64,000 bases of DNA, from contig OZ014411.1 in the NCBI GenBank assembly GCA_963965975.1, positions 18,442,446 through 18,506,445 of the forward strand. The letters are read 5' to 3'. Below the pieces are notes generated by a model. The model worked only from the letters and a program-made list of their open reading frames with translations, had not been told where the DNA came from and did not search any database. Of the stretch, positions 1 to 63,872 are shown one piece after another. The translations under genes were made by a program, and so were the position numbers. The DNA is from Xestospongia bergquistia (taxonomy: Eukaryota; Porifera; Demospongiae; Haplosclerida; Petrosiidae). Position 1 is the first letter of the stretch; every line of letters starts with the position of its first letter.

Positions 1-29
1 AAAGTCTTTAAATTAAAGACTTTATAAGG

Positions 30-75
30 TTTAGACTATTGAGTGAAGTTAATAAAGTAAACAGCACAGTCTAAA
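30..75. repeat. Third dyad: TTTAGACT / AGTCTAAA with a 30-bp spacer
   Basis: TTTAGACT (30-37) and AGTCTAAA (68-75) are exact reverse complements separated by 30 bp. Part of the motif (TCTAAAG / CTTTAGA) is shared with palindrome 1. This suggests that the monomer grew from a short AGTC/GACT-rich ancestral motif. Subfamily variants with CTAATGG, or with TTTACACT plus AGTCAAAT, break this dyad, so it is less conserved than palindromes 1 and 2. Confidence 0.8.
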
Positions 76-97
76 GGACTCTATAGGACTAACTACA

Positions 98-118
98 TAA
101 ACTGTTATTAACAGTTTA
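98..118. repeat. Palindrome 2 of the monomer, representative copy
   Basis: The arms TAAACTGTTA and TAACAGTTTA are exact reverse complements around one central T, giving a 21-bp inverted repeat. Its centre lies 96 bp after the centre of palindrome 1 and 47 bp before the next palindrome 1. The centre and adjacent bases vary often (TTGTTA, TTACTA, TTATCA, TTATAA). Arm variants such as AACTCTTATT, AACTGCTATT and AACAGTTATT mark particular higher-order repeat positions. Confidence 0.92.
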
Positions 119-426
119 GTAAGTTGGTTTGCATTAACACTATAAAGTCTTTAAATTAAAGACTTTAGAAGGTTTAGACTATTGAGTGAAGTTAATAAAG
201 TAAACAGCTCAGTCTAAACGACTCTATGGGACTAACTCAATAAAATGTTTTTAACAGTTTAGTAAGTTGGTTCGCATCAAGACTCTAATGTGTTTAAATT
301 AAAGACTTTAGAAGGTTTAGACTATTAAGTGAAGTTAATAAAGTAAACAGCTCAGTCTAAAGGACTCTATGGGACTAACTAAATAAACTGTTATTAGCAG
401 TTTAGTAAGTTGGTTTGCATTAACAC

Positions 427-455
427 TCTAAAGTCTTTAAATTAAAGACTTTAGA
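427..455. repeat. Palindrome 1 of the monomer, representative copy
   Basis: Two 14-bp arms, TCTAAAGTCTTTAA and its exact reverse complement, flank a single central A, giving a 29-bp near-perfect inverted repeat across the monomer junction. It recurs in most monomers, including the same place in the next ones at about 573, 716 and so on. A perfect palindrome with almost no loop can extrude as a cruciform or act as a symmetric protein-binding site. Neither role can be shown from sequence. Some copies carry one-arm changes such as GTGTTT or TATAGTC, and a few carry matched changes in both arms. Confidence 0.93.
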
Positions 456-5856: not shown

Positions 5857-5857
5857 A
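4144..5857. repeat. Nested 6-monomer (857-bp) tandem duplication
   Basis: The 4144-5000 and 5001-5857 units share five of six monomers in order: TTTACACT/GATGAAAG, TGTTTAGAG, AAGGACTTT with GTTAACTAAG, AGAAAGTTT with AATAAATAAAC, and TATAGTC with TTATAAACAG. Only the sixth differs. The period is 857 rather than 858 because the AATAAATAAAC monomer is one base short. The same pair is carried over into copy B at about 6714-8426. Confidence 0.88.
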
Positions 5858-11400: not shown

Positions 11401-14344
11401 AGTAAGTTGGTTTGCATTAACAATCTAAAGGCTTTAAATTAAAGACTTTAGAAGGTTTAGACTATTGAGTGAAGTTAATAAAGTAAACAGCTCAGTCTAA
11501 ACGACTCTATGGGACTAACTAAATAAAATGTTATTACAGTTTAGTAAGTTGGTTTGCATTAAGACTCTAATGTGTTTAAATTAAAGACTTTAGAAGGTTT
11601 AGACTATTGAGTGAAGTTAATAAAGTAAACAGCTCAGTCTAAAGGACTCTATGGGACTAACTAAATAAACTGTTATTAACAGTTTAGTAAGTTGGTTTGC
11701 ATTAAGACTCTAAAGTCTTTAAATTAAAGACTTTAGAAGGTTTAGACTATTGAGTGAACTTAATAAAGTAAACAGCTCAGTCTAAAGGACTCTATGGGAC
11801 TAACTAAATAAACTGCTATTAACAGTTTAGTAAGTTGGTTTGCTTTAATACTCTAAAGTCTTTAAATTAAAGACTTTAGAAGGTTTAGACTATTGAGTGA
11901 AGTTAATAAAGTAAACAGCACAGTCTAAAGGACTCTATGGGACTAACTAAATAAACTGTCATTAACAGTTTAGTAAGTTGGTTTGCATTAACACTCTAAA
12001 GTCTTTAAATTAAAGACTTTAGAAGGTTTAGACTATTGAGTGAAGTTAATAATGTAAACAGCTCAGTCTAAACCACTCTATGGGACTAACTAAATAAAAT
12101 GTTATTAACAGTTTAGTAAGTTGGTTTGCATTAAGACTCTAATGTGTTTAAATTAGAGACTTTAGAAGGTTTAGACTATTAAGTGAAGTTAATAAAGTAA
12201 ACAGCTCAGACTAAAGGACTCTAAGGGACTAACTAAATAAACTGTTATTAACAGTTTAGTAAGTTGGTTTGCATTAACATTCTAAAGTCTTTAAATTAAA
12301 GACTTTAGAAGGTTCAGACTATTGAGTGAAGTTAATAAAGTAAACAGCTCAGTCTAAGCGACTCTATGGGACTAAATAAATAAACTGTTATTAACAGTTT
12401 AGTAATTTGGCTTGCTTTAACACTCTAAAGTCTTTAAATTAAAGACTTTAGAAGGTTTAGACTATTGTTTGAAGTTAACAAAGTAAACAGCTCAGTCTAA
12501 TGGACTCAACGGGACTAACTAAACGAACTCCTATTAACAATTTAGTAAGTTTGTTTGCATTAACACTCTAAAGTCTTTAAATTAAAGACTTTAGAAGGTT
12601 TAGACTATTGAGTGAAGTTAATAAAGTAAACAGCTCAGTCTAAAGGACTCTATGGGACTAACTAAATAAACTGTTACTAACAGTTTAGTAAGTTGGTTTG
12701 CATTAACTCTCTAAAGTCTTTAAATTAAATACTTTAGAAGGTTTAGACTATTGAGTGAAGTTAATAAAGTAAACAGCACAGTCTAAAGGACTCTATGGGA
12801 AAAACTAAATAAACTGTTATTAACAGTTTAGTAAGTTGGTTTGCATTAACAATCTAAAGTCTTTCAATTAAAGACTTTAGAAGGTTTGGACAATTGAGTG
12901 AAGTTAATAAAGTAAACAGCTAAGTCTAAAGGACTCTATGGGACTAAATAAATAAACTGTTATTAACAGTTTAGTAAATTGGTTTGCGTTAACACTCTAA
13001 AGTCTTTAAATTAAAGACTTAGAAAGTTTAGACTATTGAGTGAATTTAATAAAGTAAATAGCACAGTCTAAAGGACTCTATGGGACTAAATAAATAAAAT
13101 GTTATTAACAGTTTAGTAAGTTGGTTTGCGTTAACACTCTAAAGTCCTTAAATTAAAGACTTTAGAAGGTTTATACTATTGAGTGAAGTTAATAAAGTAA
13201 ATAGCTCAGTCTAAAGGACTCTATGGGACTAACTAAATAAACTGTTATTAACAGTTTAGTATGTTGGTTTGCATCAACACTCTAAAGTCTTTAAATTAAA
13301 GTCTTTAGAAGGTTTAGACTATTGAGTGAAGTTAATAAAGTAAACAGCTCAGTGTAAAGGACTCTATGGGACTAACTAAATAAACTGTTATTAACAGTTT
13401 AGTAAGTTGGTTTGCATTAAGACTCTAAAGTCTTTAAATTAAAGACTTTAGAAGGTTTAGACTATAGATTGAAGGTAACAAAGTAAACAGCTTAGTTTCA
13501 TGGACACTACGGGACTAACTAAATGAACTCTTATTAACAGTTTAGTAAGTTGGTTTGCATTAAATCTCTAAACTCTTTAAATTAAAGAGTTTAGAAGGTT
13601 TAGACTATTGAGTGAAGTTAATAAAGTAAACAGCTCAGTCTAAACGACTCTATGGGACTAACTAAATAAACTGTTATTAACAGTTTAGCAATTTGGTTTG
13701 CATTAACTATATAAAGTCTTTAAAATAAAGACTTTAGAAGGTTTCCACTATTGAGTGAAGTTAGTAAAGTAAACAGCTCAGTCTAAAGGACTCTATGGGA
13801 CTAACTAAGTGAAATGTTATTAACGGTTTAGTAGGTAGGTTTGCATTAACACTCTAAAGTCTTTAAATTAAAGACTTTAGAAGGTTTAGAATATTGAGTG
13901 AAGTTAATAAAGTAAACAGCTCAGTCTAAAGGACTCTATGGGACTAACTAAATAAACTGCTATTAACAGTTTAGTAAGTTGGTTTACCTTAACACTCTAA
14001 AGTCTTTAAATTAAAGACTTTAGAAGGTTTAGACTATTGATGAAAGTTAACAAAGTAAACAGCTCAGGCAAATGGACTCTACGGGAGAAGCTGAATTAAC
14101 TGTTATTAACTGTTTAGCAAGTTGGTTTGCATTAACAGTCTAAAGTCTTTAAATTAAAGACTTTAGAAGGTTTAGACTATTGAGTGAAGGTAATAAAGTA
14201 AACAGCACAGACTAAAGGACTCTATGGGACTAACTACATAAACTGTTTTTAACAGTTCAGTTAGTTGGTTTGCATTGACACTATAAAGTCTTTAAATTAA
14301 AGACTTTAGAAGGTTTACACTATTCAGTGAAGTTAATAAAGTAA
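8427..14344. repeat. Tandem 18-19-monomer higher-order repeats, diverged
   Basis: About 41 monomers. Variant series recur in the same order. CTAATGTG monomers lie near 8713, 9570, 11568 and 12140. GTAATTTGG, then a TTGTTTGAAG/CTAATGG monomer, then AAATACTT, CTTTCAATT or CAATCT, and CAGCTAAG with AAATAAAT follow them. Then come AGACTTAGA with GCGCAG, TTTCATGG with TACGGG, and the double-variant palindrome AAACTCTTT. The last marker starts at 11142, 13570 and 16143, spacings of 2,428 and 2,573 bp (17 and 18 monomers). Copies differ by a few percent and by whole monomers, so this layer is older than the blocks on either side. Confidence 0.8.
11139..11167. repeat. Palindrome 1 with matched changes in both arms
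   Basis: Here the left arm reads TCTAAACTCTTTAA and the right arm is its exact reverse complement. G has become C on the left and C has become G on the right, so pairing is kept. The same double change occurs in monomers starting at 13570, 16143, 25297, 35310 and 41029. All sit just after a TTTCATGG monomer, so they probably descend from one event. The monomer starting near 1144 has the right-arm change with a different left arm. Copies near 50170 and 51900 have the right-arm change only. Confidence 0.85.
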
Positions 14345-17300
14345 ACAGCTCAGTCTAAACGACTCTATGGGACTAAATAAATAAAATGTTATTAACAGTT
14401 TAGTAAGTTGGTTTGCATTAAGACTCTAATGTGTTTAAATTAAAGACTTTAGAAGGTTTAGACTATTGAGTGAAGTTAATAAAGTAAACAGCTCAGTCTA
14501 AAGGACTCTATGGGACTAACTAAATAAACTGTTATTAACAGTTTAGTAAGTTGGTTTGCATTAAGACTCTAAAGCCTTTAAATTAAAGACTTTAGAAGGT
14601 TTAGACTATTGAGTGAAGTTAATAAAGTAAACAGCTCAGTCTAAAGGACTCTATGGGACTAACTAAATAAACTGCTATTAACAGTTTAGTAAGTTGGTTT
14701 GCTTTAACACTCTAAAGTCTTTAAATTAAAGACTTTAGAAGGTTTAGACTATTGAGTGAAGTTAATAAAGTAAACAGCACAGTCTAAAGGACTCTATGGG
14801 ACTAACTAAATAAACTGTCATTAACAGTTTAGTAAGTTGGTTTGCATTAACACTCTAATGTGTTTAAATTAAAGACTTTAGAAGGTTTAGACTATTAAGT
14901 GAAGTTAATAAAGTAAACAGCTCAGTCTAAAGGACCCTATGGGACTAACTAAATAAACTGTTATTAACAGTTTAGTAAGTTGGTTTGCATTAACACTCTA
15001 AAGTCTTTAAATTAAAGACATTAGAAGGTTTAGACTATTGAGTGAAGTTAATAAAGTAAAAAGCTCAGTCTAAGCGACTCTATGGTACTAAATATATAAA
15101 CTGTTATTAACAGTTTAGTAATTTGGCTTGCTTTAACACTCTAAAGTCTTTAAATTAAAGACTTTAGAAGGTTTAGACTATTGTTTGAAGTTAAGAAAGT
15201 AAACAGCTCAGTCTAATGGACTCTACGGGACTAACTAAACGAACTCCTATTAAAAGTTTAGTCAGTTGGTTTGCATTAACACTCTAAAGTCTTTAAATTA
15301 AAGACTTTAGAAGGTTTAGACTATTGAGTGAAGTTAATAAAGTAAACAGCTCAGTCTAAAGGACTCTATGGGACTAACTAAATAAACTGTTATTAACAGT
15401 TTAGTAAGTTGGTTTGCATTAACTCTCTAAAGTCTTTAAATTAAATACTTTAGAAGGTTTAGACTATTGAGTGAAGTTAATAAAGTAGACAGCTCAGTCT
15501 AAAGGACTCTATGGGACAAACTAAATAAACTGTTATTAACAGTTTAGTAAGTTGGTTTGCATTAACAATCAAAAGTCTTTCAATTAAAGACTTTAGAAGG
15601 TTTGGACTATTGAGTGAAGTTAATAAAGTAAACAGCTAAGTCTAAAGGACTCTATGGGACTAAATAAATAAACTGTTGTTAACAGTTTAGTAAGTTGGTT
15701 TGAGTTAACACTCTAAAGTCTTTAAATTAAAGACTTAGAAGGTTTAGACTGTTGAGTGAAGTTAATAAAGTAAATAGCTCAGTCTAAAGGACTCTATGGG
15801 ACTAACTAAATAAACTGTTATTAACAGTTTAGTATGTTGGTTTGCATTAACACTCTAAAGTCTTTAAATTAAAGTCTTTAGAAGGTTTCGACTATTGAGT
15901 GAAGTTAATAAAGTAAACAGCTCAGTGTAAAGGACTCTACGGGACTAACTAAATAAACTGTTATTAACAGTTTAGTAAGTTTGTTTGCATTAAGACTCTA
16001 AAGTCTTTAAATTAAAGACTTTAGAAGGTTTAGACTATAGATTGAAGTTAACAAAGTAAACAGCTCAGTTTCATGGACACTACGGGACTAACTAAATGAA
16101 CTCTTATTAACAGTTTAGTAAGTTGGTTTGTATTAAAACTCTAAACTCTTTAAATTAAAGAGTTTAGAAGGTTTAGACTATTGAGTGAAGTTAATAAAGT
16201 AAACAGCTCAGTCTAAACGACTCTATGGGACTAACTAAATAAACTGTTATTAACAGTTTAGCAATTTGGTTTGCATTAACTATCTAAAGTCTTTAAATTA
16301 AAGACTTTAGAAGGTTTCCACTATTGAGTGAAGTTAGTAAAGTAAACAGCTCAGTCTAAAGGACTCTATGGGACTAACTAAGTGAAATGTTATTAACGGT
16401 TTAGTAGGTAGGTTTGCATTAACACTCTAACGTCTTTAAATTAAAGACTTTAGAAGGTTTAGACTATTGAGTGAAGTTAATAAAGTAAACAGCTCAGTCT
16501 AAAGGACTCTATGGGACTAACTAAATAAACTGCTATTAACAGTTTAGTAAGTTGGTTTGCCTTAACACTCTAAAGTCTTTAAATTAAAGACTTTAGAAGG
16601 TTTACACTATTGATGAATGTTAACAATGTAAACAGCTCAGGCAAATGGACTCTACGGGACAAGCTGAATTAACTGTTATTAACTGTTTAGCAAGTTGGTT
16701 TGCATTAACAGTCTAAAGTCTTTAAATTAAAGACTTTAGAATGTTTAGAGTATTGAGTGAAGTTAATAAAGTAAACAGCTCAGTCTAAAGGACTCTATGG
16801 GACTAACTAAATAAACTGTTATTAACAGTTTAGTAAGTGGGTTTGCACTAACACTTTAAAGTCTTTAAATTAAAGACTTTAGAAGGTTTAGACTAATTAG
16901 TGAAGTTAATAAAGTAAACAGCTTACTTTTAAAGGACTCTATGGGACTAACTAAATAAACTTTTATTAACAGTTTAGTAAGTTGGTTTGCATTAACACTC
17001 TAAAGTCTTTAAATTAATGACTTTAGAAGGTTTAGACTATTGATTGAAGTTAATAAAGTAAACAGCTCAGTCTAATGGACTCTATTGGAGTAACTAAATA
17101 AACTGTTATCAACAGTTTAGTAAGTTGATTTGCATTAACACTCTAAAGTCTTTAAATTAAAGACTTTAGAAGTTTTAGACTATTGAGTGAAGTTCATAAA
17201 GTAAAAGGCTCAGTCTAAAGGACTCTATCGGACTAACTAAGTAAACTGTTATAAACAGTTTAGTAAGTTTGTTTGCATTAACACTCTAAAGTCTTTAAAT

Positions 17301-20300
17301 TAAAGACTTTAGAAGGTTTAGACTATTGAGTCAAGTTAATAAAGTAAACAGCTCAGTCTAAAGGACTCTATGGGACTAACTAAATAAACTGTTATTAACA
17401 GTTTAGTAAGTTGGTTTGCGTTAACACTCTAAAGTCTTTAACTTAAAGACTTTAGAGGGTTTAGACTATTGATTGAAGTTAACAAAGTAAACAGCTCAGT
17501 CTAATGGACTCTATGGGACTAACTAAACTAACTGTTATTAACAGTTTAGCAAGTTGGTTTGCATTAACTATCTAAAGTCTTTAAATTAAAGACTTTAGAA
17601 GGTTTAGACTATTCAGTGAAGTTAACAAAGTAAACAGCTCAGTCTAATGGACTCTATGGGACTAATTAAATGAACTGTTATTAACAGTTTAGTAAGTTGG
17701 TTTGCATCAACACTCTAAAGTCTTTAAATTAAGGACTTTAGAAGGTTTGGACTATTGAGTGAAGTTAACTAAGTAAACAGCTCAGTCTAAAGAACTCTAT
17801 GGGACTAACTAAATAAACTGTTATTAACAGTATAGTAAGTATGTTTGCATTAACATTCTAAAGTCTTTAAATTAAAGACTTTAGAAGGTTTAGACTATTG
17901 AGTGAAGTTAATAAAGTAAACAGCTCAGTCTAAACGACTCTATGGGACTAACTAAGTAAACTGTTATTAACAGTTTAGCAAGTTTGTTTGCATTAACACT
18001 CTAAAGTCTTTAAATTACAGACTTTAGAAGGTTTAGACTATTGAGTCAAGTTAATAAAGTGAACAGCTCAGTCTAAAGGACTCTATGGGACTAACTAAAT
18101 AAACAGTTATTAACAGTTTAGTAAGTTGCTTTGCTTTAACCCTCTAAAGTCTTTAAATTAAGGACTTTAGAAGGTTTAGACTATTGATTGAAGTTAACAA
18201 AGTGAACAGCTCAGTCTAATGGACTCTATGGGACTAACTAAATTAACTGTTATGAACAGTTTCGCAAGTTGGTTTGCATTAACTATCTGAAGTCTTTAAA
18301 TTAAAGACTTTAGAAGGTTTAGACTATTGAGTGAACTTAATAAAGTAAACAGCTCAGTTTAAAGGACTCTAAGGGACTAAATAAATAAACTGTTATTAAC
18401 AGTTTAGTAAGTTGGTTTGCATTAACACTCTAAAGTCTTTAAATTAAAGACTTTAGAAGGTTTAGACTATTGAGTGAAGTTAACAAAGTAAACAGCTCAG
18501 TCTAAAGGACTCTATGGGACTAACTAAATAAACTGTTATTAACAGTATAGTAAGTATGTTTGCATTAACATTCTAAAGTCTTTAAATTAAAGACTTTAGA
18601 AGGTTTAGACTATAGAGTGAAGTTAATAAAGTAAACAGCTCAGTCTAAACGACTCTATGGGACTATCTAAGTAAACTGTTATTAACAGTTTAGCAAGTTT
18701 GTTTGCATTAGCACTCTAAAGTCTTTAAATTACAGACTTTAGAAGGTTTAGACTATTGAGTCAAGTTAATAAAGTGAACAGCTCAGTCTAAAGGACTCTA
18801 TGGCACTAACTAAATAAACAGTTATTAACAGTTTAGTAAGTTGCTTTGCTTTAAACCTCTAAAGTCTTTAAATGAAAGACTTTAGAAGGTTTAGACTATT
18901 GATTGAAGTTAACAAAGTGAACAGCTCAGTCTAATGGACTCTATGGGACTAACTAAATTAACTGTTATGAACAGTTTCGCAAGTTGGTTTGCATTAACTA
19001 TCTGAAGTCTTTAAATTAAAGACTTTAGAAGGTTTAGACTATTGAGTGAACTTAATAAAGCAAACAGCTCAGTCTAAAGGACTCTAAGGGACTAACTAAA
19101 TAAACTGTTATTAACAGTTTAGTAAGTTGGTTTGCTTTAACACTCTAAAGTCTTTAAATTAAAGACTTTAGAAGGTTTAGACTATTGAGTGAAGTGTTAA
19201 TAAAGTAAACAGCTCAGTCTAAAGTACTCTATGGGACTAACTAAATAAACTGTTATTAACAGTTTAGTAAGTTGGTTTGCATTAACACTCTAAAGTCTTT
19301 AAATTAAAGACTTTAGAAGGTTTAGACTATTGATTGAAGTTAATAAAGTAAACAGCTCAGTCTAAAGGACTCTATCGGACTAACTAAATAAACTGTTACT
19401 AACAGTTTAGAAAGTTGGTTTGCATTAACACTTTAAAGTCTTTAAATTAAGGACTTTAGAAGGTTTAGACTATTGAGTGAAGTTAACTAAGTAAACAGCT
19501 CAGTCTAAAGGACTCTATGGGACTAACTAAATTAACTTTTATTAACAGTTTAGCAAGTTGGTTTGCATTAACTATATAAAGTCTTTAAATTAAAGACTTT
19601 AGAAGGTTTAGACTATTGAGTGAAGTTAATAAAGTAAACAGCTCAGTCTAATGGACTCTATGGGACTAACTAAATGAACTGTTATTAACAGTTTAGTAAG
19701 TTGGTTTGCATCAACACTCTAAAGTCTTTAAATTAAGGACTTTAGAAGGTTGGGACTATTGAGTGAAGTTAACTAAGTAAACAGTTCAGTCTAAAGGACT
19801 CTATGGGACTAACTAAATAAACTGTTATTAACAGTATAGTAAGTATGTTTGCATTAACATTCTAAAGTCTTTAAATTAAAGACTTTAGAAGGTTTAGACT
19901 ATTTAGTGAAGTTAATAAAGTAAACAGGTCAGTCTAAACGACTCTATTGGACTAACTAAGTAAACTGTTATTAACAGTTTAGCAAGTTGGTTTGCATTAA
20001 CACTCTAAAGTCTTTAAATTACAGACTTTAGAAGGTTTAGACTATTGAGTCAAGTTAATAAAGTAAACAGCTCAGTCTAAAGGACTCTATGGGACTAACT
20101 AAATAAACAGTTATTAACAGTTTAGTAAGTTGCTTTGCTTTAACCCTCTAAAGTCTTTAAATTAAAGACTTTAGAAGGTTTAGACTATTGATTGAAGTTA
20201 ACAAAGTGAACAGCTCAGTCTAATGGACTCTATGGGACTAACTAAATTAACTGTTATGAACAATTTCGCAAGTTGGTTTGCATTAACTATCTGAAGTCTT

Positions 20301-23297
20301 TAAATTAAAGACTTTAGAATGTTTAGACTATTGAGTGAACTTAATAAAGTAAACAGCTCAGTCTAAAGGACTCTATGGGACTAACTAAATAAACTGTTAT
20401 TAACAGTTTAGTAAGTTGGTTTGCATTAACACTCTAAAGTCTTTAAATTAAAGACTTTAGAAGGTTTAGACTATTGAGTGAAGTTAATAAAGTAAACAGC
20501 TCAGTCTAAAGGACTCTATGGGACTAACTAAATAAACTGTTATTATCAGTTTGGTAAGTTGGTTTGCATTAACACTCTAAAGTCTTTAAATTAAAGACTT
20601 TAGAAGGTTTAGACTATTGAGTGAAGTTAATAAAGTAAACAGCTCAGTCTAAAGGACTCTATCGGACTAACTAAATAAACTGTTACTAACAGTTTAGTAA
20701 GTTGGTTTGCATTAACACTTTAAAGTCTTTAAATTAAGTACTTTAGCAGGTTTAGACTATTGAGTGAATTTAACTATGTAAACAGCTCAGTCTAAAGGAC
20801 TCAATGGGACTAACTAAATAAACTGTTATTAACAGTTTAGTAAGTTGGTTTGCGTTAACACTCTAAAGTCTTTAAATTAAAGACTTTAGAAGGTTTAGAC
20901 TATTGAGTGAAGTTAATAAAGTAAACAGCTCAGTCTAAAGGACTCTATCGGACTAACTAAATAAACTGTTACTAACAGTTTAATAAGTTGGTTTGCCTTA
21001 ACACTCTATAGTCTTTAAATTAAAGACTTTAGAAGGTTTAGACTATTGCATGAAGTTAATAAAGTAAACAGCTCAGTCTAAAGGACTCTATGGGACTAAC
21101 TAAATAAAATGTTATTAACAGTTTACTAAGTTGGTTTACATTAACACTCTAAAGTCTTTAAATTAAAGACTTTAGAAGGTTTAGACTATTGATTGATGTT
21201 AAGAAAGTAAACAGCTCAGTCTAAACCATTCTATGGGACTAACTAAATAAAATGTTATTAACAGTTTAGTAAGTTTGTTTGCCTTAATACTCTATAGTCT
21301 TTAAATTAAAGACTTTAGAAGGTTTAGACTATTGAGTGAAGTTAACAAAGTAAACAGCTCCGTCTAAACGACTCTATGGGACTAACTAAATATACTGCTA
21401 TTAACAGTTTAGTAAGTTGGTTTGCATTAACACTCTAAAGTCTTTAAATTAAAGACTTTGGAAGGTTTAGACTATTTAGTGATGTTAATAAAGTAAACAG
21501 CTCAGTCTAAACGACTCTAAGGGACTAACTAAATAAACTGCTATTAACAGTTTAGTAAGTTGGTTTGCATTAACACTCTAAAGTGTTTACATTAAAGATT
21601 TTTGAATATTTAGACTATTAAGTGAAGTTAATAAAGTAAACAGCTCAGTCCAAAGGACTCTATGGGACTAACTAAATAAACTGTTATTAACAGTTTAGCA
21701 ATTTGGTTTGCTTTAACACTCTAAAGTCTTTAAATTAAAGACTTTTGAAGGTTTAGACTATTGATTGAAGTTAACAAAGTAAACAGCTCAGTCTAAAGGA
21801 CTCTATGGGACTAAATAAATAAACTATTATTAACAGTTTAGTAAGTTGGTTTGCCTTAACACTCTATAGTCTTTAAATTAAAGACTTTAGAAGGTTTAGA
21901 CTATTGAGTGAAGTTAATAAAGTAAACAGCTCAGTCTAAACGACTCTAAGGGACTAACTAAATAAACTGCTATTAACAGTTTAGTAAGTTGGTTTGCATT
22001 AACACTCTAAAGTGTTTACATTAAAGACTTTTGAATATTTAGACTATTAAGTGAAGTTAATAAAGTAAACAGCTCACTCCAAAGGACTCTATGGGACTAA
22101 CTAAATAAACTGTTGTTAACAGTTTAGTAATTTGGTTTGCTTTAACACTCTAAAGTCTTTAAATTAAAGACTTTAGAAGGTTTAGACTATTGATTGAAGT
22201 TAACAAAGTAAACAGCTCAGTCTAAAGGACTCTATGGGACTAAATAAATAAACTATTATTAACAGTTTAGTATGATGGTTTGCCTTAACACTCTATAGTC
22301 TTTAATTTAAAGACTTTAGAAGGTTTAGACTGTTGTGTGAAGTTCATAAAGTAAACAGCTCAGTGTAAAGGACTGTATTAGACTAACTGAATGAACTGTT
22401 ATTAACAGTTTAGTAAGTTGCTTTGCTTTAACACTCTATAGTCTTTAAATTAAAGACTTTAGAAGGTTTAGACTATTGATTGAAGTTCACAAAGTAAACA
22501 GCTCAGTCTAAAGGACTCTATGGGACTAACTAAATGAACTGTTATTAACAGTTTAGTAAATTGGTTTGCATTAACACTTTAAAGTCTTTAAATTAAAGAC
22601 TTTAGAAGGTTTAGACTATTAAGTGAAGTTAATAAAGTAAACAGCTTAGTTTAAAGGACTCTACGGGACTAACAAAATAAACTGTTATTAACAGTTGAGT
22701 AAGTTGGTTTGCATTAACACTCTAAAGTCTTTAAATTAAAGACTTTCGATGGTTTAGACTATTGAATGAAGTTAATAAAGTAAACAGCTCAGTCTAAAGG
22801 ACTCTATGGGACTAACTAAGTAAAATGTTATTAACAGTTTACTAAGTTGGTTTGCATTAACACTCTAAAGTCTTTAAATTAAAGACTTTAGAAGGTTTAG
22901 ACTATTGATACATGTTAAGAAAGTAAACAGCTCAGTCTAAACCACTCTATGGGACTTACTAAATAAAATGTTATTAACAGTTTAGTAAGTTGGTTTGCAT
23001 TAAGACTCTAATGTGTTTAAATTAAAGACTTTAGAAGGTTTAGACTATTAAGTGAAGTTAATAAAGTAAACAGCTCAGTCTAAACCACTCTATGGGACTA
23101 ACTAAATAAACTGTTATTAACAGTTTAGTAAGTTGGTTTGCATTAATACTCTAAAGTCTTTAAATTAAAGACTTTAGAAGGTTTAGACTATTGAGTGAAG
23201 TTAATAAAGTAAACAGCTCAGTCTAATCGACTCTATGGGACTAACTAAATAAACTGCTATTAACAGTTTAGTAAGTTGGTTTGCATTAACACTCTAA
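14345..23297. repeat. 64-monomer block, copy 1 of a near-perfect tandem duplication
   Basis: About 8.95 kb reappears at an offset of 9,154 bp (64 monomers plus 2 bp). Rare markers fix the offset: AGGACCCTAT (14931 and 24085), AAAGACATTAG (about 15014 and 24168), AAACTCTTT (16143 and 25297) and GTCTAATCGA (23221 and 32375). Reading both copies I saw about seven substitutions and no indels, roughly 99.9% identity. Examples are AATTAATGAC versus AATTAAAGAC near 17016, TTTGCG versus TTTGCT near 17420, and TTTACA versus TTTGCA near 21139. Copy 1 contains older internal 3-mer and 5-mer repeats, such as the GAGTCAAG/TTCGCAAG/CTGAAG triplet at about 18002, 18717 and 20007. Confidence 0.93.
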
Positions 23298-23724
23298 AGC
23301 CTTTAAATTAAAGACTTTAGAAGGTTTAGACTATTGAGTGAACTTAATAAAGTAAACAGCTCAGTCTAAAGGACTCTATGGGACTAACTAAATAAACTGC
23401 TATTAACAGTTTAGTAAGTTGGTTTGCTTTAACACTCTAAAGTCTTTAAATTAAAGACTTTAGAAGGTTTAGACTATTGAGTGAAGTTAATAAAGTAAAC
23501 AGCACAGTCTAAACGACTCTATGGGACTAAATAAATAAAATGTTATTAACAGTTTAGTAAGTTGGTTTGCATTAAGACTCTAATGTGTTTAAATTAAAGA
23601 CTTTAGAAGGTTTAGACTATTGAGTGAAGTTAATAAAGTAAACAGCTCAGTCTAAAGGACTCTATGGGACTAACTAAATAAACTGTTATTAACAGTTTAG
23701 TAAGTTGGTTTGCATTAAGACTCT
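23296..23724. repeat. Junction of the 64-mer duplication with a 3-monomer (429-bp) repeat
   Basis: The monomer with TAAAGCCTTT starts at 23296 and again at 23725. About 210 bp from 23296 (AGCC, GTGAACTTAAT, GCTATTAAC, GCTTTAAC, CAGCACAG) matches the sequence 429 bp downstream. Copy 1 of the 64-mer stops matching at about 23297 and copy 2 begins at about 23499. This stretch is therefore the scar between them. The GTGAACTT variant at 23773 in copy 2, which is GTGAAGTT at 14619 in copy 1, is shared with 23342. That fits local conversion or exchange at the junction. Confidence 0.8.
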
Positions 23725-26700
23725 AAAGCCTTTAAATTAAAGACTTTAGAAGGTTTAGACTATTGAGTGAACTTAATAAAGTAAACAGCTCAGTCTAAAG
23801 GACTCTATGGGACTAACTAAATAAACTGCTATTAACAGTTTAGTAAGTTGGTTTGCTTTAACACTCTAAAGTCTTTAAATTAAAGACTTTAGAAGGTTTA
23901 GACTATTGAGTGAAGTTAATAAAGTAAACAGCACAGTCTAAAGGACTCTATGGGACTAACTAAATAAACTGTCATTAACAGTTTAGTAAGTTGGTTTGCA
24001 TTAACACTCTAATGTGTTTAAATTAAAGACTTTAGAAGGTTTAGACTATTAAGTGAAGTTAATAAAGTAAACAGCTCAGTCTAAAGGACCCTATGGGACT
24101 AACTAAATAAACTGTTATTAACAGTTTAGTAAGTTGGTTTGCATTAACACTCTAAAGTCTTTAAATTAAAGACATTAGAAGGTTTAGACTATTGAGTGAA
24201 GTTAATAAAGTAAAAAGCTCAGTCTAAGCGACTCTATGGTACTAAATATATAAACTGTTATTAACAGTTTAGTAATTTGGCTTGCTTTAACACTCTAAAG
24301 TCTTTAAATTAAAGACTTTAGAAGGTTTAGACTATTGTTTGAAGTTAAGAAAGTAAACAGCTCAGTCTAATGGACTCTACGGGACTAACTAAACGAACTC
24401 CTATTAACAGTTTAGTCAGTTGGTTTGCATTAACACTCTAAAGTCTTTAAATTAAAGACTTTAGAAGGTTTAGACTATTGAGTGAAGTTAATAAAGTGAA
24501 CAGCTCAGTCTAAAGGACTCTATGGGACTAACTAAATAAACTGTTATTAACAGTTTAGTAAGTTGGTTTGCATTAACTCTCTAAAGTCTTTAAATTAAAT
24601 ACTTTAGAAGGTTTAGACTATTGAGTGAAGTTAATAAAGTAGACAGCTCAGTCTAAAGGACTCTATGGGACAAACTAAATAAACTGTTATTAACAGTTTA
24701 GTAAGTTGGTTTGCATTAACAATCAAAAGTCTTTCAATTAAAGACTTTAGAAGGTTTGGACTATTGAGTGAAGTTAATAAAGTAAACAGCTAAGTCTAAA
24801 GGACTCTATGGGACTAAATAAATAAACTGTTGTTAACAGTTTAGTAAGTTGGTTTGAGTTAACACTCTAAAGTCTTTAAATTAAAGACTTAGAAGGTTTA
24901 GACTGTTGAGTGAAGTTAATAAAGTAAATAGCTCAGTCTAAAGGACTCTATGGGACTAACTAAATAAACTGTTATTAACAGTTTAGTATGTTGGTTTGCA
25001 TTAACACTCTAAAGTCTTTAAATTAAAGTCTTTAGAAGGTTTCGACTATTGAGTGAAGTTAATAAAGTAAACAGCTCAGTGTAAAGGACTCTACGGGACT
25101 AACTAAATAAACTGTTATTAACAGTTTAGTAAGTTTGTTTGCATTAAGACTCTAAAGTCTTTAAATTAAAGACTTTAGAAGGTTTAGACTATAGATTGAA
25201 GTTAACAAAGTAAACAGCTCAGTTTCATGGACACTACGGGACTAACTAAATGAACTCTTATTAACAGTTTAGTAAGTTGGTTTGTATTAAAACTCTAAAC
25301 TCTTTAAATTAAAGAGTTTAGAAGGTTTAGACTATTGAGTGAAGTTAATAAAGTAAACAGCTCAGTCTAAACGACTCTATGGGACTAACTAAATAAACTG
25401 TTATTAACAGTTTAGCAATTTGGTTTGCATTAACTATCTAAAGTCTTTAAATTAAAGACTTTAGAAGGTTTCCACTATTGAGTGAAGTTAGTAAAGTAAA
25501 CAGCTCAGTCTAAAGGACTCTATGGGACTAACTAAGTGAAATGTTATTAACGGTTTAGTAGGTAGGTTTGCATTAACACTCTAACGTCTTTAAATTAAAG
25601 ACTTTAGAAGGTTTAGACTATTGAGTGAAGTTAATAAAGTAAACAGCTCAGTCTAAAGGACTCTATGGGACTAACTAAATAAACTGCTATTAACAGTTTA
25701 GTAAGTTGGTTTGCCTTAACACTCTAAAGTCTTTAAATTAAAGACTTTAGAAGGTTTACACTATTGATGAATGTTAACAATGTAAACAGCTCAGGCAAAT
25801 GGACTCTACGGGACAAGCTGAATTAACTGTTATTAACTGTTTAGCAAGTTGGTTTGCATTAACAGTCTAAAGTCTTTAAATTAAAGACTTTAGAATGTTT
25901 AGAGTATTGAGTGAAGTTAATAAAGTAAACAGCTCAGTCTAAAGGACTCTATGGGACTAACTAAATAAACTGTTATTAACAGTTTAGTAAGTGGGTTTGC
26001 ACTAACACTTTAAAGTCTTTAAATTAAAGACTTTAGAAGGTTTAGACTAATTAGTGAAGTTAATAAAGTAAACAGCTTACTTTTAAAGGACTCTATGGGA
26101 CTAACTAAATAAACTTTTATTAACAGTTTAGTAAGTTGGTTTGCATTAACACTCTAAAGTCTTTAAATTAAAGACTTTAGAAGGTTTAGACTATTGATTG
26201 AAGTTAATAAAGTAAACAGCTCAGTCTAATGGACTCTATTGGAGTAACTAAATAAACTGTTATCAACAGTTTAGTAAGTTGATTTGCATTAACACTCTAA
26301 AGTCTTTAAATTAAAGACTTTAGAAGTTTTAGACTATTGAGTGAAGTTCATAAAGTAAAAGGCTCAGTCTAAAGGACTCTATCGGACTAACTAAGTAAAC
26401 TGTTATAAACAGTTTAGTAAGTTTGTTTGCATTAACACTCTAAAGTCTTTAAATTAAAGACTTTAGAAGGTTTAGACTATTGAGTCAAGTTAATAAAGTA
26501 AACAGCTCAGTCTAAAGGACTCTATGGGACTAACTAAATAAACTGTTATTAACAGTTTAGTAAGTTGGTTTGCTTTAACACTCTAAAGTCTTTAACTTAA
26601 AGACTTTAGAGGGTTTAGACTATTGATTGAAGTTAACAAAGTAAACAGCTCAGTCTAATGGACTCTATGGGACTAACTAAACTAACTGTTATTAACAGTT

Positions 26701-29700
26701 TAGCAAGTTGGTTTGCATTAACTATCTAAAGTCTTTAAATTAAAGACTTTAGAAGGTTTAGACTATTCAGTGAAGTTAACAAAGTAAACAGCTCAGTCTA
26801 ATGGACTCTATGGGACTAATTAAATGAACTGTTATTAACAGTTTAGTAAGTTGGTTTGCATCAACACTCTAAAGTCTTTAAATTAAGGACTTTAGAAGGT
26901 TTGGACTATTGAGTGAAGTTAACTAAGTAAACAGCTCAGTCTAAAGAACTCTATGGGACTAACTAAATAAACTGTTATTAACAGTATAGTAAGTATGTTT
27001 GCATTAACATTCTAAAGTCTTTAAATTAAAGACTTTAGAAGGTTTAGACTATTGAGTGAAGTTAATAAAGTAAACAGCTCAGTCTAAACGACTCTATGGG
27101 ACTAACTAAGTAAACTGTTATTAACAGTTTAGCAAGTTTGTTTGCATTAACACTCTAAAGTCTTTAAATTACAGACTTTAGAAGGTTTAGACTATTGAGT
27201 CAAGTTAATAAAGTGAACAGCTCAGTCTAAAGGACTCTATGGGACTAACTAAATAAACAGTTATTAACAGTTTAGTAAGTTGCTTTGCTTTAACCCTCTA
27301 AAGTCTTTAAATTAAGGACTTTAGAAGGTTTAGACTATTGATTGAAGTTAACAAAGTGAACAGCTCAGTCTAATGGACTCTATGGGACTAACTAAATTAA
27401 CTGTTATGAACAGTTTCGCAAGTTGGTTTGCATTAACTATCTGAAGTCTTTAAATTAAAGACTTTAGAAGGTTTAGACTATTGAGTGAACTTAATAAAGT
27501 AAACAGCTCAGTTTAAAGGACTCTAAGGGACTAAATAAATAAACTGTTATTAACAGTTTAGTAAGTTGGTTTGCATTAACACTCTAAAGTCTTTAAATTA
27601 AAGACTTTAGAAGGTTTAGACTATTGAGTGAAGTTAACAAAGTAAACAGCTCAGTCTAAAGGACTCTATGGGACTAACTAAATAAACTGTTATTAACAGT
27701 ATAGTAAGTATGTTTGCATTAACATTCTAAAGTCTTTAAATTAAAGACTTTAGAAGGTTTAGACTATAGAGTGAAGTTAATAAAGTAAACAGCTCAGTCT
27801 AAACGACTCTATGGGACTATCTAAGTAAACTGTTATTAACAGTTTAGCAAGTTTGTTTGCATTAGCACTCTAAAGTCTTTAAATTACAGACTTTAGAAGG
27901 TTTAGACTATTGAGTCAAGTTAATAAAGTGAACAGCTCAGTCTAAAGGACTCTATGGCACTAACTAAATAAACAGTTATTAACAGTTTAGTAAGTTGCTT
28001 TGCTTTAAACCTCTAAAGTCTTTAAATGAAAGACTTTAGAAGGTTTAGACTATTGATTGAAGTTAACAAAGTGAACAGCTCAGTCTAATGGACTCTATGG
28101 GACTAACTAAATTAACTGTTATGAACAGTTTCGCAAGTTGGTTTGCATTAACTATCTGAAGTCTTTAAATTAAAGACTTTAGAAGGTTTAGACTATTGAG
28201 TGAACTTAATAAAGCAAACAGCTCAGTCTAAAGGACTCTAAGGGACTAACTAAATAAACTGTTATTAACAGTTTAGTAAGTTGGTTTGCTTTAACACTCT
28301 AAAGTCTTTAAATTAAAGACTTTAGAAGGTTTAGACTATTGAGTGAAGTGTTAATAAAGTAAACAGCTCAGTCTAAAGTACTCTATGGGACTAACTAAAT
28401 AAACTGTTATTAACAGTTTAGTAAGTTGGTTTGCATTAACACTCTAAAGTCTTTAAATTAAAGACTTTAGAAGGTTTAGACTATTGATTGAAGTTAATAA
28501 AGTAAACAGCTCAGTCTAAAGGACTCTATCGGACTAACTAAATAAACTGTTACTAACAGTTTAGAAAGTTGGTTTGCATTAACACTTTAAAGTCTTTAAA
28601 TTAAGGACTTTAGAAGGTTTAGACTATTGAGTGAAGTTAACTAAGTAAACAGCTCAGTCTAAAGGACTCTATGGGACTAACTAAATTAACTTTTATTAAC
28701 AGTTTAGCAAGTTGGTTTGCATTAACTATATAAAGTCTTTAAATTAAAGACTTTAGAAGGTTTAGACTATTGAGTGAAGTTAATAAAGTAAACAGCTCAG
28801 TCTAATGGACTCTATGGGACTAACTAAATGAACTGTTATTAACAGTTTAGTAAGTTGGTTTGCATCAACACTCTAAAGTCTTTAAATTAAGGACTTTAGA
28901 AGGTTGGGACTATTGAGTGAAGTTAACTAAGTAAACAGTTCAGTCTAAAGGACTCTATGGGACTAACTAAATAAACTGTTATTAACAGTATAGTAAGTAT
29001 GTTTGCATTAACATTCTAAAGTCTTTAAATTAAAGACTTTAGAAGGTTTAGACTATTTAGTGAAGTTAATAAAGTAAACAGGTCAGTCTAAACGACTCTA
29101 TTGGACTAACTAAGTAAACTGTTATTAACAGTTTAGCAAGTTGGTTTGCATTAACACTCTAAAGTCTTTAAATTACAGACTTTAGAAGGTTTAGACTATT
29201 GAGTCAAGTTAATAAAGTAAACAGCTCAGTCTAAAGGACTCTATGGGACTAACTAAATAAACAGTTATTAACAGTTTAGTAAGTTGCTTTGCTTTAACCC
29301 TCTAAAGTCTTTAAATTAAAGACTTTAGAAGGTTTAGACTATTGATTGAAGTTAACAAAGTGAACAGCTCAGTCTAATGGACTCTATGGGACTAACTAAA
29401 TTAACTGTTATGAACAATTTCGCAAGTTGGTTTGCATTAACTATCTGAAGTCTTTAAATTAAAGACTTTAGAATGTTTAGACTATTGAGTGAACTTAATA
29501 AAGTAAACAGCTCAGTCTAAAGGACTCTATGGGACTAACTAAATAAACTGTTATTAACAGTTTAGTAAGTTGGTTTGCATTAACACTCTAAAGTCTTTAA
29601 ATTAAAGACTTTAGAAGGTTTAGACTATTGAGTGAAGTTAATAAAGTAAACAGCTCAGTCTAAAGGACTCTATGGGACTAACTAAATAAACTGTTATTAT

Positions 29701-32451
29701 CAGTTTGGTAAGTTGGTTTGCATTAACACTCTAAAGTCTTTAAATTAAAGACTTTAGAAGGTTTAGACTATTGAGTGAAGTTAATAAAGTAAACAGCTCA
29801 GTCTAAAGGACTCTATCGGACTAACTAAATAAACTGTTACTAACAGTTTAGTAAGTTGGTTTGCATTAACACTTTAAAGTCTTTAAATTAAGTACTTTAG
29901 CAGGTTTAGACTATTGAGTGAATTTAACTATGTAAACAGCTCAGTCTAAAGGACTCAATGGGACTAACTAAATAAACTGTTATTAACAGTTTAGTAAGTT
30001 GGTTTGCGTTAACACTCTAAAGTCTTTAAATTAAAGACTTTAGAAGGTTTAGACTATTGAGTGAAGTTAATAAAGTAAACAGCTCAGTCTAAAGGACTCT
30101 ATCGGACTAACTAAATAAACTGTTACTAACAGTTTAATAAGTTGGTTTGCCTTAACACTCTATAGTCTTTAAATTAAAGACTTTAGAAGGTTTAGACTAT
30201 TGCATGAAGTTAATAAAGTAAACAGCTCAGTCTAAAGGACTCTATGGGACTAACTAAATAAAATGTTATTAACAGTTTACTAAGTTGGTTTGCATTAACA
30301 CTCTAAAGTCTTTAAATTAAAGACTTTAGAAGGTTTAGACTATTGATTGATGTTAAGAAAGTAAACAGCTCAGTCTAAACCATTCTATGGGACTAACTAA
30401 ATAAAATGTTATTAACAGTTTAGTAAGTTTGTTTGCCTTAATACTCTATAGTCTTTAAATTAAAGACTTTAGAAGGTTTAGACTATTGAGTGAAGTTAAC
30501 AAAGTAAACAGCTCCGTCTAAACGACTCTATGGGACTAACTAAATATACTGCTATTAACAGTTTAGTAAGTTGGTTTGCATTAACACTCTAAAGTCTTTA
30601 AATTAAAGACTTTGGAAGGTTTAGACTATTTAGTGATGTTAATAAAGTAAACAGCTCAGTCTAAACGACTCTAAGGGACTAACTAAATAAACTGCTATTA
30701 ACAGTTTAGTAAGTTGGTTTGCATTAACACTCTAAAGTGTTTACATTAAAGATTTTTGAATATTTAGACTATTAAGTGAAGTTAATAAAGTAAACAGCTC
30801 AGTCCAAAGGACTCTATGGGACTAACTAAATAAACTGTTATTAACAGTTTAGCAATTTGGTTTGCTTTAACACTCTAAAGTCTTTAAATTAAAGACTTTT
30901 GAAGGTTTAGACTATTGATTGAAGTTAACAAAGTAAACAGCTCAGTCTAAAGGACTCTATGGGACTAAATAAATAAACTATTATTAACAGTTTAGTAAGT
31001 TGGTTTGCCTTAACACTCTATAGTCTTTAAATTAAAGACTTTAGAAGGTTTAGACTATTGAGTGAAGTTAATAAAGTAAACAGCTCAGTCTAAACGACTC
31101 TAAGGGACTAACTAAATAAACTGCTATTAACAGTTTAGTAAGTTGGTTTGCATTAACACTCTAAAGTGTTTACATTAAAGACTTTTGAATATTTAGACTA
31201 TTAAGTGAAGTTAATAAAGTAAACAGCTCACTCCAAAGGACTCTATGGGACTAACTAAATAAACTGTTGTTAACAGTTTAGTAATTTGGTTTGCTTTAAC
31301 TCTCTAAAGTCTTTAAATTAAAGACTTTAGAAGGTTTAGACTATTGATTGAAGTTAACAAAGTAAACAGCTCAGTCTAAAGGACTCTATGGGACTAAATA
31401 AATAAACTATTATTAACAGTTTAGTATGATGGTTTGCCTTAACACTCTATAGTCTTTAATTTAAAGACTTTAGAAGGTTTAGACTGTTGTGTGAAGTTCA
31501 TAAAGTAAACAGCTCAGTGTAAAGGACTGTATTAGACTAACTGAATGAACTGTTATTAACAGTTTAGTAAGTTGCTTTGCTTTAACACTCTATAGTCTTT
31601 AAATTAAAGACTTTAGAAGGTTTAGACTATTGATTGAAGTTCACAAAGTAAACAGCTCAGTCTAAAGGACTCTATGGGACTAACTAAATGAACTGTTATT
31701 AACAGTTTAGTAAATTGGTTTGCATTAACACTTTAAAGTCTTTAAATTAAAGACTTTAGAAGGTTTAGACTATTAAGTGAAGTTAATAAAGTAAACAGCT
31801 TAGTTTAAAGGACTCTACGGGACTAACAAAATAAACTGTTATTAACAGTTGAGTAAGTTGGTTTGCATTAACACTCTAAAGTCTTTAAATTAAAGACTTT
31901 CGATGGTTTAGACTATTGAATGAAGTTAATAAAGTAAACAGCTCAGTCTAAAGGACTCTATGGGACTAACTAAGTAAAATGTTATTAACAGTTTACTAAG
32001 TTGGTTTGCATTAACACTCTAAAGTCTTTAAATTAAAGACTTTAGAAGGTTTAGACTATTGATACATGTTAAGAAAGTAAACAGCTCAGTCTAAACCACT
32101 CTATGGGACTTACTAAATAAAATGTTATTAACAGTTTAGTAAGTTGGTTTGCATTAAGACTCTAATGTGTTTAAATTAAAGACTTTAGAAGGTTTAGACT
32201 ATTAAGTGAAGTTAATAAAGTAAACAGCTCAGTCTAAACCACTCTATGGGACTAACTAAATAAACTGTTATTAACAGTTTAGTAAGTTGGTTTGCATTAA
32301 TACTCTAAAGTCTTTAAATTAAAGACTTTAGAAGGTTTAGACTATTGAGTGAAGTTAATAAAGTAAACAGCTCAGTCTAATCGACTCTATGGGACTAACT
32401 AAATAAACTGCTATTAACAGTTTAGTAAGTTGGTTTGCATTAACACTCTAA
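23499..32451. repeat. 64-monomer block, copy 2
   Basis: Copy 2 of the 9,154-bp duplication matches 14345-23297 in order, monomer by monomer. Copy-2-specific changes include AAAGTGAAC near 24487 (AAAGTAAAC in copy 1), CTATTAACAG near 24403 (CTATTAAAAG in copy 1) and TTTAACTCTC near 31300 (TTTAACACTC in copy 1). The match ends at about 32451, where AAAGCC in copy 1 becomes AAAGTC and the following monomers differ. Confidence 0.93.
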
Positions 32452-33764
32452 AGTCTTTAAATTAAAGACTTTAGAAGGTTTAGACTATTGAGTGAAGTTA
32501 ATAAAGTAAACAGCTCAGTCTAAAGGATTCTATTGGACTAACTAAATAAAGTTTTATGAACAGTCTAGTAAGTTGGTTTGCCTTAAAACTCTAAAATCTT
32601 AAAATTAAAGACTTTAGAAGGTTTAGACTATTGAGTGAAGTTAATAAAGTAAACAGCTCAGTCTAAAGGACTCTATGGGACTAACTAAGTAAAATGTTAT
32701 TAACAGTTTACTAAGTTGGTTTGCATTAACACTTTAAAGTCTTTAAATTAAAGACTTTAGAAGGTTTAGACTATTAAGTGAAGTCAATAAAGTAAACAGC
32801 TTAGTTTAAAGGACTCTACGGGACTAACAAAATAAACTGTTATTAACAGTTTAGTAAGTTGGTTTGCATTAACACTCTAAAGTCTTTAAATTAAAGACTT
32901 TAGAAGGTTTAGACTATTCAGTGAAGTTAATAAAGTAAACAGCTCAGTGTAAAGGACTCTATGGGACTAACTAGGTAAACTGTTATTAACAGTTTAGTAA
33001 GTTTGTTTGCATTAACACTCTAAAGTCTTTAAATTAAAGACTTTCGATGGTTTAGACTATTGAGTGAAGTTAACTAAGTAAACAACTCAGTCTAAAGGAC
33101 TCTATGGGACTAACTAAATAAACTGTTATTAACAGTTTAGCAACTTGGTTTGCATTAACACTCTAAAGTCTTTAAATTAAAGACTTTAGAAAGTTTAGAC
33201 TATTGAGTGAAGTTAATAAAGTAAACAGCTCAGACTAAAGGATTCTATGGGACTAAATAAATAAACTGTTATTAACAGTTTAGTAAGTTGGTTTGCCTTA
33301 ACACTCAATAGTCTTTAAATTAAAGACTTTAGAAGGTTTAGACTATTGAGTGAATTTATTAAAGTAAACAGCTCAGTCTAAAGGACTCTATGGGACTAAC
33401 TAAATAAACTGTTATTAACAGTTTAGTAAGTTGGTTTGCATTAACAGTCTAAAATCTTTAAATTAAAGACTTTAGAAGGTTTAGACTATTGAGTGAAGTT
33501 AATAAAGTAAACAGCTCAGTCTAAACGACTCTAAGGGACTAACTAAATAAACTGCTATTAACAGTTTAGTAAGTTGGTTTGCATTAACACTTTAAAGTGT
33601 TTACATTAAAGACTTTTGAATATTTAGACTATTAAGTGAAGTTAATAAAGTAAACAGCTCAGTCCAAAGGACTCTATGGGACTAACTAAATAAACTGTTA
33701 TTAACAGTTTAGTAATTTGGTTTACTTTAACACTCTAAAGTCTTTAAATTAAAGACTTTAGAAG
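32452..33764. repeat. Nine-monomer linker between the two largest duplications
   Basis: Ordinary monomers in mixed order. It includes a rare variant near 32595 (AAAATCTTAAAATT) and a CTATTGG/TTTTATGAAC monomer. A short series (CGATGG, AGAAAGTTT, GAATTTATTAAAG, then TGTTTACATT with TGAATATTT) recurs inside 33765-45340 and at 45604. No clean tandem partner was found within the window. Confidence 0.7.
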
Positions 33765-48300: not shown

Positions 48301-48944
48301 TTGGTTTGCATTAACACTCTAAAGTCTTTAAATTAAAGACTTTAGATAGTTTAGACTATTGAGTGAAGTTAATAAAGTAAACAGCTCAGACTAAAGGATT
48401 CTATGGACTAAATAAATAAACTGTTATTAACAGTTTAGTAAGTTGGTTTGCCTTAACACTCAATAGTCTTTAAATTAAAGACTTTAGAAGGTTTAGACTA
48501 TTGAGTGAATTTATTAAAGTAAACAGCTCAGTCTAAAGGACTCTATGGGACTAACTAAATAAACTGTTATTAACAGTTTAGTAAGTTTGTTTGCATTAAG
48601 ACTCTAAAGTCTTTAAATTAAAGACTTTAGAATGTTTAGACTATTGATTGAAGTTAAGAAAGTAAACAGCTCAGTCTAATAGACTCTATGGGACTAACCA
48701 AATGAGGTTTTATTAACAGTTTAGTAAGTTGCTTTGCATTAACAATCTAAAATCTTTAAATTAAAGACTTTAGAAGGTTTAGACTATTGAGTTAAGTTAA
48801 TAAGTTAAACAGCTCAGTCTAAAGGATTCTATGGGACTAAATAAATAAACTATTATTAACAGTTTAGTAAGTTGGTTTGCCTTAACACTCTATAGTCTTT
48901 AAATTAAAGACTTTAGAAGGATTAGACTATTGAGTGAAGTTAAT
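45341..48944. repeat. Segment with a partial 14-monomer (2,002-bp) duplication
   Basis: The monomer with AAGTGTTTACATT and TGAATATTT starts at 45604 and again at 47606, exactly 14 monomers apart. About seven following monomers agree in order: TTGAAGTTAAC with ACTATTATT; TATAGTC with CTTAGTTTAAAGG; TTTAGTG with CAGTGTAAAGG; CGATGG; AGAAAGTTT or AGATAGTTT; and GAATTTATTAAAG. The match then fails near 48600. One small indel, CTATGGACTAAAT near 48410, lacks two bases. From 48601 to 48944 there are only ordinary mixed monomers. Confidence 0.75.
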
Positions 48945-63800: not shown

Positions 63801-63872
63801 TAAAGGACTCTATTGGACTAACTAAATAAACTGTTATTAACAGTTTAGTAAGTTGCTTTGCATTAACACTCT

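What the first reader, a model, noticed from the sequence alone, without database searches (positions are those of the whole stretch)
14345..32451. A 9.15-kb, 64-monomer tandem duplication at about 99.9% identity
Two adjacent blocks of about 8.95 kb share every rare variant in the same order at an offset of 9,154 bp. I saw about seven substitutions and no indels. Monomers within a block differ from each other by several percent, so this is a very recent segmental event laid over an old array. A unit of 64 monomers is far longer than common satellite higher-order repeats. The substitutions argue against a simple assembly duplication, but that must be tested.
Basis: seen in the sequence. Interest (0 to 1): 0.72.

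Follow-up and report, generated by a model that had tools for sequence, protein, structure and literature searches.

The report
Recent 9-kb duplication in satellite DNA
A long run of 143-base repeats, in a genome that looks like a marine sponge's, contains a stretch of 64 repeats that was recently copied next to itself; this is normal behaviour for such repeats, and its seam carries a small copied patch that hints at how the copying happened.

Summary
At offset 9,154 bp (64 monomers of a 143-bp satellite), 14351-23299 and 23505-32453 match over 8,949 bp with 7 substitutions and no indels; random monomer pairs are about 90% alike. It is not a 64-mer higher-order repeat: two copies, no periodicity at lag 64 (0.902; 0.899-0.903 at 12 other lags). 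It is one of many recent duplications: 46.5% of the 264 kb examined lies in runs of 500 bp or more at 99% or more identity, including a larger, older one of about 30 kb.

New here: the copies do not abut. The seam (23300-23504, at most 23291-23513) is an exact copy of sequence three monomers further on and carries a base private to copy 2. A second young duplication also has an exact internal patch at its seam; three of seven are clean. Most likely: out-of-register recombination or break-induced replication with a short template switch. An assembly artefact is unlikely but untested, as no reads were available. Host probably a demosponge. New member of a known kind; modest interest.

The parts
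1..64000 (+). 143-bp satellite array filling the whole window; part of a longer array on C1, about 18.37-18.72 Mb
   Evidence: TRF period 143 over 1-58775 and 58769-64000. 1,842 monomers over 264 kb, mean 94.4% identical to consensus. Exact 81-mers listed on C1 from 18372088 to 18721229. 2-kb samples at 18.30 and 18.80 Mb have no satellite match, the one at 18.70 Mb has.
14351..23299 (+). Copy 1 of the tandem duplication (8,949 bp)
   Evidence: 7 mismatches and 0 indels against 23505-32453 at offset 9154.
23505..32453 (+). Copy 2 of the tandem duplication
23300..23504 (+). Seam patch between the copies (minimum 205 bp; maximum 23291-23513, 223 bp)
   Evidence: 23291-23513 has 0 mismatches to 23720-23942 (offset +429, 3 monomers) and 1 mismatch to 14566-14788. 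Next best places have 2 (11707) and 3 (2281) mismatches. On the 9154 diagonal, a 162-bp core of the seam has 13 mismatches to the right flank and 15 to the left flank (alignment).
23720..23942 (+). Apparent template of the seam patch, inside copy 2
   Evidence: It shares the copy-2-private C (23343 = 23772 = C; copy 1 14618 = G, the array majority, 1640 of 1842 monomers).
17794..19195 (+). Older 5-monomer (715 bp) duplication inside copy 1, also in copy 2 at 26948-28349
   Evidence: 687-bp run with 11 mismatches in each copy.

Best explanation
A 143-bp satellite array, probably of a demosponge and perhaps centromeric, is being rebuilt by serial segmental duplication. The flagged block is one such event: a recombination or replication-restart end invaded about 61 monomers out of register, copied 205-223 bp, slipped or re-invaded 3 monomers further back, and then copied on through the block. 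This left two 64-monomer-spaced copies with a short templated patch at the seam. Shown: the two copies, the 7 substitutions, the patch and its exact match, and a second event with the same anatomy. Inferred: that patch and duplication arose in one event, that the mechanism was break-induced replication or an interrupted exchange with template switching, and that the donor molecule (sister or homologue) carried the C now seen in both the patch and copy 2.
For: The offset is a whole number of monomers (64.01), and so are the two jumps (61.01 and 3.00); both breakpoints fall in 9-bp shared intervals, 23291-23299 and 23505-23513. A plain exchange predicts an identity run at least as long as the offset; 3 of the 7 distinct young events of 1 kb or more show that (offsets 2611, 1714, 1281), while the 9154 event falls 205 bp short and the gap is an exact internal copy. 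A second young event (offset 3145, 2,891 bp with 0 mismatches) has a 254-369 bp seam patch identical to sequence 12 monomers back and 10 forward. Exact copies of this length are rare by chance: 0.95% of 204-bp and 0.29% of 254-bp windows outside recent duplications. The two 9-kb copies differ only at single bases at least 90 bp apart, with no multi-base conversion tract, so a later conversion falling exactly on the seam is unlikely.
Against: Only two events with exact patches were seen, in one array of one assembly; 3 of 7 young events are clean, and the other two (1144, 1856) have short runs without an exact patch (best seam matches 2 mismatches). Older events (offsets 2001, 1287, 1572) have seams whose best matches carry 14, 5 and 48 mismatches, so they neither help nor exclude. 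Later gene conversion at the seam gives the same sequence. Break-induced replication is described as mutagenic, but the substitutions are balanced between copies (3, 3 and 1 unclear). The background rate was measured outside recent runs; near a seam it could be higher, and 9 of 150 random windows had a copy with at most 1 mismatch. No reads, second haplotype or second individual were examined.
Confidence: 0.6

Rival explanations
1. Plain unequal crossing-over of 64 monomers, followed later by ordinary gene conversion of the seam from a monomer 3 units downstream.
For: Explains the same sequence. Gene conversion between repeats in tandem arrays is a long-standing idea (Dover 1982 as told in passages of PMC8997354). 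2 of 150 random 204-bp windows also had exact copies elsewhere. The shared C fits a donor in copy 2 after it had mutated.
Against: No conversion tract is visible elsewhere in the two 8,949-bp copies, so one landing exactly on a 205-bp seam is improbable. A second event repeats the coincidence.
Confidence: 0.25
2. Assembly artefact: two haplotypes, or a repeat-graph loop, laid in tandem.
For: 7 differences in 9 kb is compatible with allelic divergence. The reads cannot be checked. Two other tandem pairs in the array are 100% identical (2,891 and 2,617 bp).
Against: A false tandem join is made through shared overlap and should have a clean seam; here the seam holds a distinct 205-223 bp internal copy. 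Copy-specific bases lie at most 3,718 bp apart, so long accurate reads could separate the copies. No N in the 264 kb examined. Differences are balanced between copies.
Confidence: 0.1
3. Two successive exchanges: first a 61-monomer duplication, then a second crossover between the duplicated chromosome and an unduplicated homologue, 3 monomers out of register near the first seam.
For: Gives the observed order (inference), and the 7 differences plus the shared C would then be old allelic differences.
Against: Needs two independent crossovers within about 220 bp of each other; the 3145 event would need the same again.
Confidence: 0.05

Closest known systems
Duplications in satellite arrays by out-of-register exchange (Smith 1976 model) or break-induced replication (Rice model), as reviewed in PMC8997354 (passages read)
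   Same: Direct duplication of whole numbers of monomers, high identity, in a long head-to-tail array; range of sizes and ages.
   Different: The identity run is 205 bp shorter than the offset because of a templated patch at the seam.
Higher-order repeats such as those of human alpha satellite (longest quoted there: 34 monomers on the Y; PMC8997354 passages)
   Same: A block of distinct monomers is repeated in order.
   Different: Only two copies, no periodicity at lag 64, variable block sizes.
Templated insertions linked to microhomology-mediated break-induced replication (start of the abstract of PMC8421209; PMC6258378 on clustered copy-number variants was seen only as a listing with 11 uses of the term)
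   Same: Short sequence copied from elsewhere and inserted at a rearrangement junction.
   Different: Here the switches occur in register between roughly 90% identical monomers, so homology rather than microhomology may guide them; membership is not shown.

Membership tests
Higher-order repeat (HOR) | Several to many consecutive copies of an n-monomer unit, seen as periodicity | tested here: not met
   Two copies only; mean identity at lag 64 is 0.902 against 0.899-0.903 at 12 other lags between 2 and 128, over 1,842 monomers.
Plain unequal-exchange tandem duplication | High-identity run at least as long as the offset, copies abutting | tested here: not met
   Run 8,949 against offset 9,154; seam patch 23300-23504. 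Met by 3 of 7 distinct young events of 1 kb or more (offsets 2611, 1714, 1281).
Tandem segmental duplication in a satellite array | Neighbouring direct copies, whole number of monomers, far above array identity | tested here: met
   64 monomers, 99.92% against about 90%.
Replication-based (BIR/template-switch) duplication | Templated sequence at the seam copied from nearby | tested here: met
   Exact 223-bp match at +429; second event exact 369-bp match at -1716 and +1429. Does not by itself exclude gene conversion.
Replication-based (BIR/template-switch) duplication | Raised mutation load in the newly made copy | tested here: inconclusive
   3 derived in each copy, 1 unclear: no excess in one copy, but 7 sites cannot decide, and which copy is the new one is not known.
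Centromeric satellite | Binds CENP-A / kinetochore | not testable with these tools
   No chromatin data.
Centromeric satellite | Long arrays on many chromosomes with dyad symmetries | tested here: inconclusive
   Matches listed on C1, C2, C3 and C9; the other contigs were not tabulated, lists being capped. Consensus folds better than shuffles, z -3.07, 2 of 200 shuffles as good.
Assembly artefact | No spanning reads, abnormal depth | not testable with these tools
   No reads held.

The most novel reading that the evidence does not exclude
Long duplications in this satellite are made by one-event template switching, leaving an exact internal patch of about 1.5-2.5 monomers at the seam. Seam patches could then be used to tell break-induced replication from plain unequal crossover across satellite arrays.
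Probability: 0.35. Interest if true: 0.5.

Novelty: new member of a known kind. Interest (0 to 1): 0.33.

Why it matters
Unequal exchange, gene conversion and break-induced replication are rival models of how satellite arrays grow (PMC8997354 passages). Very young duplications with readable seams are direct traces of single events. This array has several, two of them with exact templated patches, so the models can be tested by counting seam types in long-read assemblies. The 64-monomer length itself is not remarkable: a larger duplication lies in the same array.

Tried and rejected
Rejected: higher-order repeat (no periodicity). Chance similarity. A preferred cut motif: both 9-bp breakpoint intervals hold TCTAAA, but the second event's intervals are 55 and 60 bp long and do not discriminate, so I drop it. 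An altered outer flank as the origin of the mismatch: the 204 bp before copy 1 have no close source (best 10 mismatches) and the 204 bp after copy 2 have best 5, so the seam, not the flanks, is the exact copy.

Led nowhere: naming the species. The 18,997-bp contig C21 reads COX1 with TGA as tryptophan and looks demosponge-like by my own reading, with no sequence comparison behind it. Passages of the Xestospongia muta genome note (PMC12398682) give an 18.99-kb mtDNA and chromosomes of 35.36 and 22.15 Mb, similar in shape but not equal to C1/C2 here (28.17 and 16.13 Mb); its total is 158.52 Mb against 146.46 here. Phrase searches for 146.46/146.5 Mb and the listing of sponge genome notes (abstract starts) gave no match. 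A 2-kb DNA query of the genome was not scored. A BLAST of the C2 sample against C1 printed nothing and is not used. Paper searches aimed at such a satellite or at template switching in satellite arrays showed no description of it in their listings or abstract starts; 9 paper searches in all, open-licence papers only, so absence from print is not shown.

Full report
What is there. The window (C1:18442446-18506445 of a 146.46-Mb, 21-contig genome) is entirely a 143-bp satellite. 2-kb samples at 18.30 and 18.80 Mb have no satellite match, while 18.70 Mb has, and the listed exact 81-mers run from 18372088 to 18721229 on C1, so the array is roughly 350-500 kb. I read 264 kb of it, without any N. 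It holds 1,842 monomers, mean identity to consensus 94.4%, random pairs 89.5%, 1,548 distinct sequences.

The duplication. At offset 9,154 bp, 14351-23299 and 23505-32453 agree over 8,949 bp with 7 substitutions and no indels. Judged by the array-majority base, copy 1 is derived at 15254, 17018 and 21138, copy 2 at the partners of 14618, 15344 and 22147, and 17420 is unclear. The largest distance between copy-specific bases is 3,718 bp. An older 715-bp duplication sits inside both copies, so it most simply predates the event.

Not a higher-order repeat. Mean identity at 13 monomer lags from 2 to 128 lies at 0.899-0.903, lag 64 included. The block exists twice in the 264 kb, and 46.5% of the 264 kb lies in runs of at least 500 bp at 99% or more. 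A chain of 12 segments with offsets 28.4-32.0 kb, between about 73417 and 104050 in window coordinates (right of the window), marks a duplication of about 30 kb. Its six segments of more than 1.2 kb sum to 118 mismatches in about 25.2 kb, near 0.5%, against 0.08% for the flagged block; the other six are shorter and run from about 98% to 100%. All were picked for high identity, so 0.5% is a floor. A 10-kb sample of the C2 array shows the same kind of structure, such as 1,379 bp at offset 1285 with 5 mismatches.

The seam. A plain out-of-register exchange leaves an identity run at least as long as the offset. Here it is 205 bp short. The missing stretch, 23300-23504, extends to an exact 223-bp match (23291-23513) with 23720-23942, three monomers downstream in copy 2, and differs by one base from the copy-1 counterpart 14566-14788. 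That base is C in the patch and in copy 2 (23343, 23772) but G in copy 1 (14618), G being the array majority (1,640 of 1,842; C in 34). So the patch most simply comes from a copy-2-like molecule. Other similar places have 2 or more mismatches.

A second case. The tandem duplication at offset 3145 (C1:18411318-18414208 and 18414463-18417353; 2,891 bp, 0 mismatches) also has a short run, and its 254-bp seam lies in an exact 369-bp match to sequence 12 monomers back and 10 forward.

All young events. (offsets 400-12000, at most 0.6% mismatch) lists 10 rows, which are 9 distinct events; two of 429 bp are set aside as short. Of the remaining 7 (offsets 2611, 1714, 3145, 9154, 1281, 1144, 1856), two have exact seam patches; three (2611, 1714, 1281) have runs as long as the offset. 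The 1144 event is 15 or 121 bp short (the 121-bp seam best matched with 2 mismatches) but 150 bp longer than its offset under looser scoring. The 1856 event is 146 bp short, where its seam matches at -1855 with 2 mismatches, a 1-bp shift, with a 181-bp seam, no match of 8 mismatches or fewer was found. An eighth event, offset 2570, is not; its seam matches at -2713 with 3 mismatches, one monomer of indel. Older events (offsets 2001, 1287, 1572) have seams with best matches of 14, 5 and 48 mismatches and cannot be judged.

Is the patch chance? Of windows outside recent runs, 0.95% of 204-bp windows (135,265 examined) and 0.29% of 254-bp windows (134,115 examined) have an exact copy elsewhere in the 264 kb. 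In a random draw, 2 of 150 windows of 204 bp had an exact copy and 9 of 150 one with at most 1 mismatch; the mean best was 7.27 mismatches. The two long copies show no multi-base conversion tract. I therefore think the patch was made in the duplicating event, by template switching during break-induced replication or an interrupted exchange. Later gene conversion stays possible.

Mechanism in the literature. PMC8997354 (passages) sets out unequal exchange, gene conversion and break-induced replication as models for satellite arrays. Templated insertions are linked to microhomology-mediated break-induced replication in the start of the abstract of PMC8421209.

Artefact? A false tandem placement should join through shared sequence and leave no separate patch, and assemblers tend to collapse such copies rather than add one (recalled). 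That is indirect; reads are needed.

Host and function. C21 (18,997 bp) encodes COX1 with TGA read as tryptophan, demosponge-like by my reading. A sample 1.4 Mb from the array holds transposase pieces (Pfam DDE_Tnp_1_7; piggyBac-type by recall). The satellite also lies on C2, C3 and C9. The consensus has strong dyad symmetry (z -3.07), a feature PMC8997354 links to many centromeres. Centromere function is a guess.

Verdict. A true and recent tandem segmental duplication, ordinary in kind for a satellite array, with an informative seam.

Noticed in passing
C1:18515862-18546495 against 18547427 onward (window +73417 to +104050 and beyond): Larger, older tandem duplication of about 30 kb (offsets 28.4-32.0 kb, about 0.5% diverged in its best segments, with internal indels).
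   Followed up: partly
C1:18402206-18407433 (window -40239 to -35012): Tandem duplication with 0 mismatches over 2,617 bp at offset 2,611, which is 18.26 monomers, so not a whole number.
   Followed up: no
C2:12305442-12330318: Strand switches in the C2 array: identical monomers + at 12305442, - at 12315335 and 12320282, + at 12330176, symmetric spacing of 9,893 and 9,894 bp, suggesting a large inverted repeat.
   Followed up: no
58517-59025: Monomer phase break with 107-bp and 250-bp periods, where the long 143-bp array is split by TRF.
   Followed up: no
C6:3154917-3200446: COX1-like pieces with stop codons in another contig, possible nuclear copies of mtDNA.
   Followed up: no
whole genome: Only 13 histone-fold matches from 25 candidates, which seems few for an animal genome (counts are lower bounds).
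   Followed up: no
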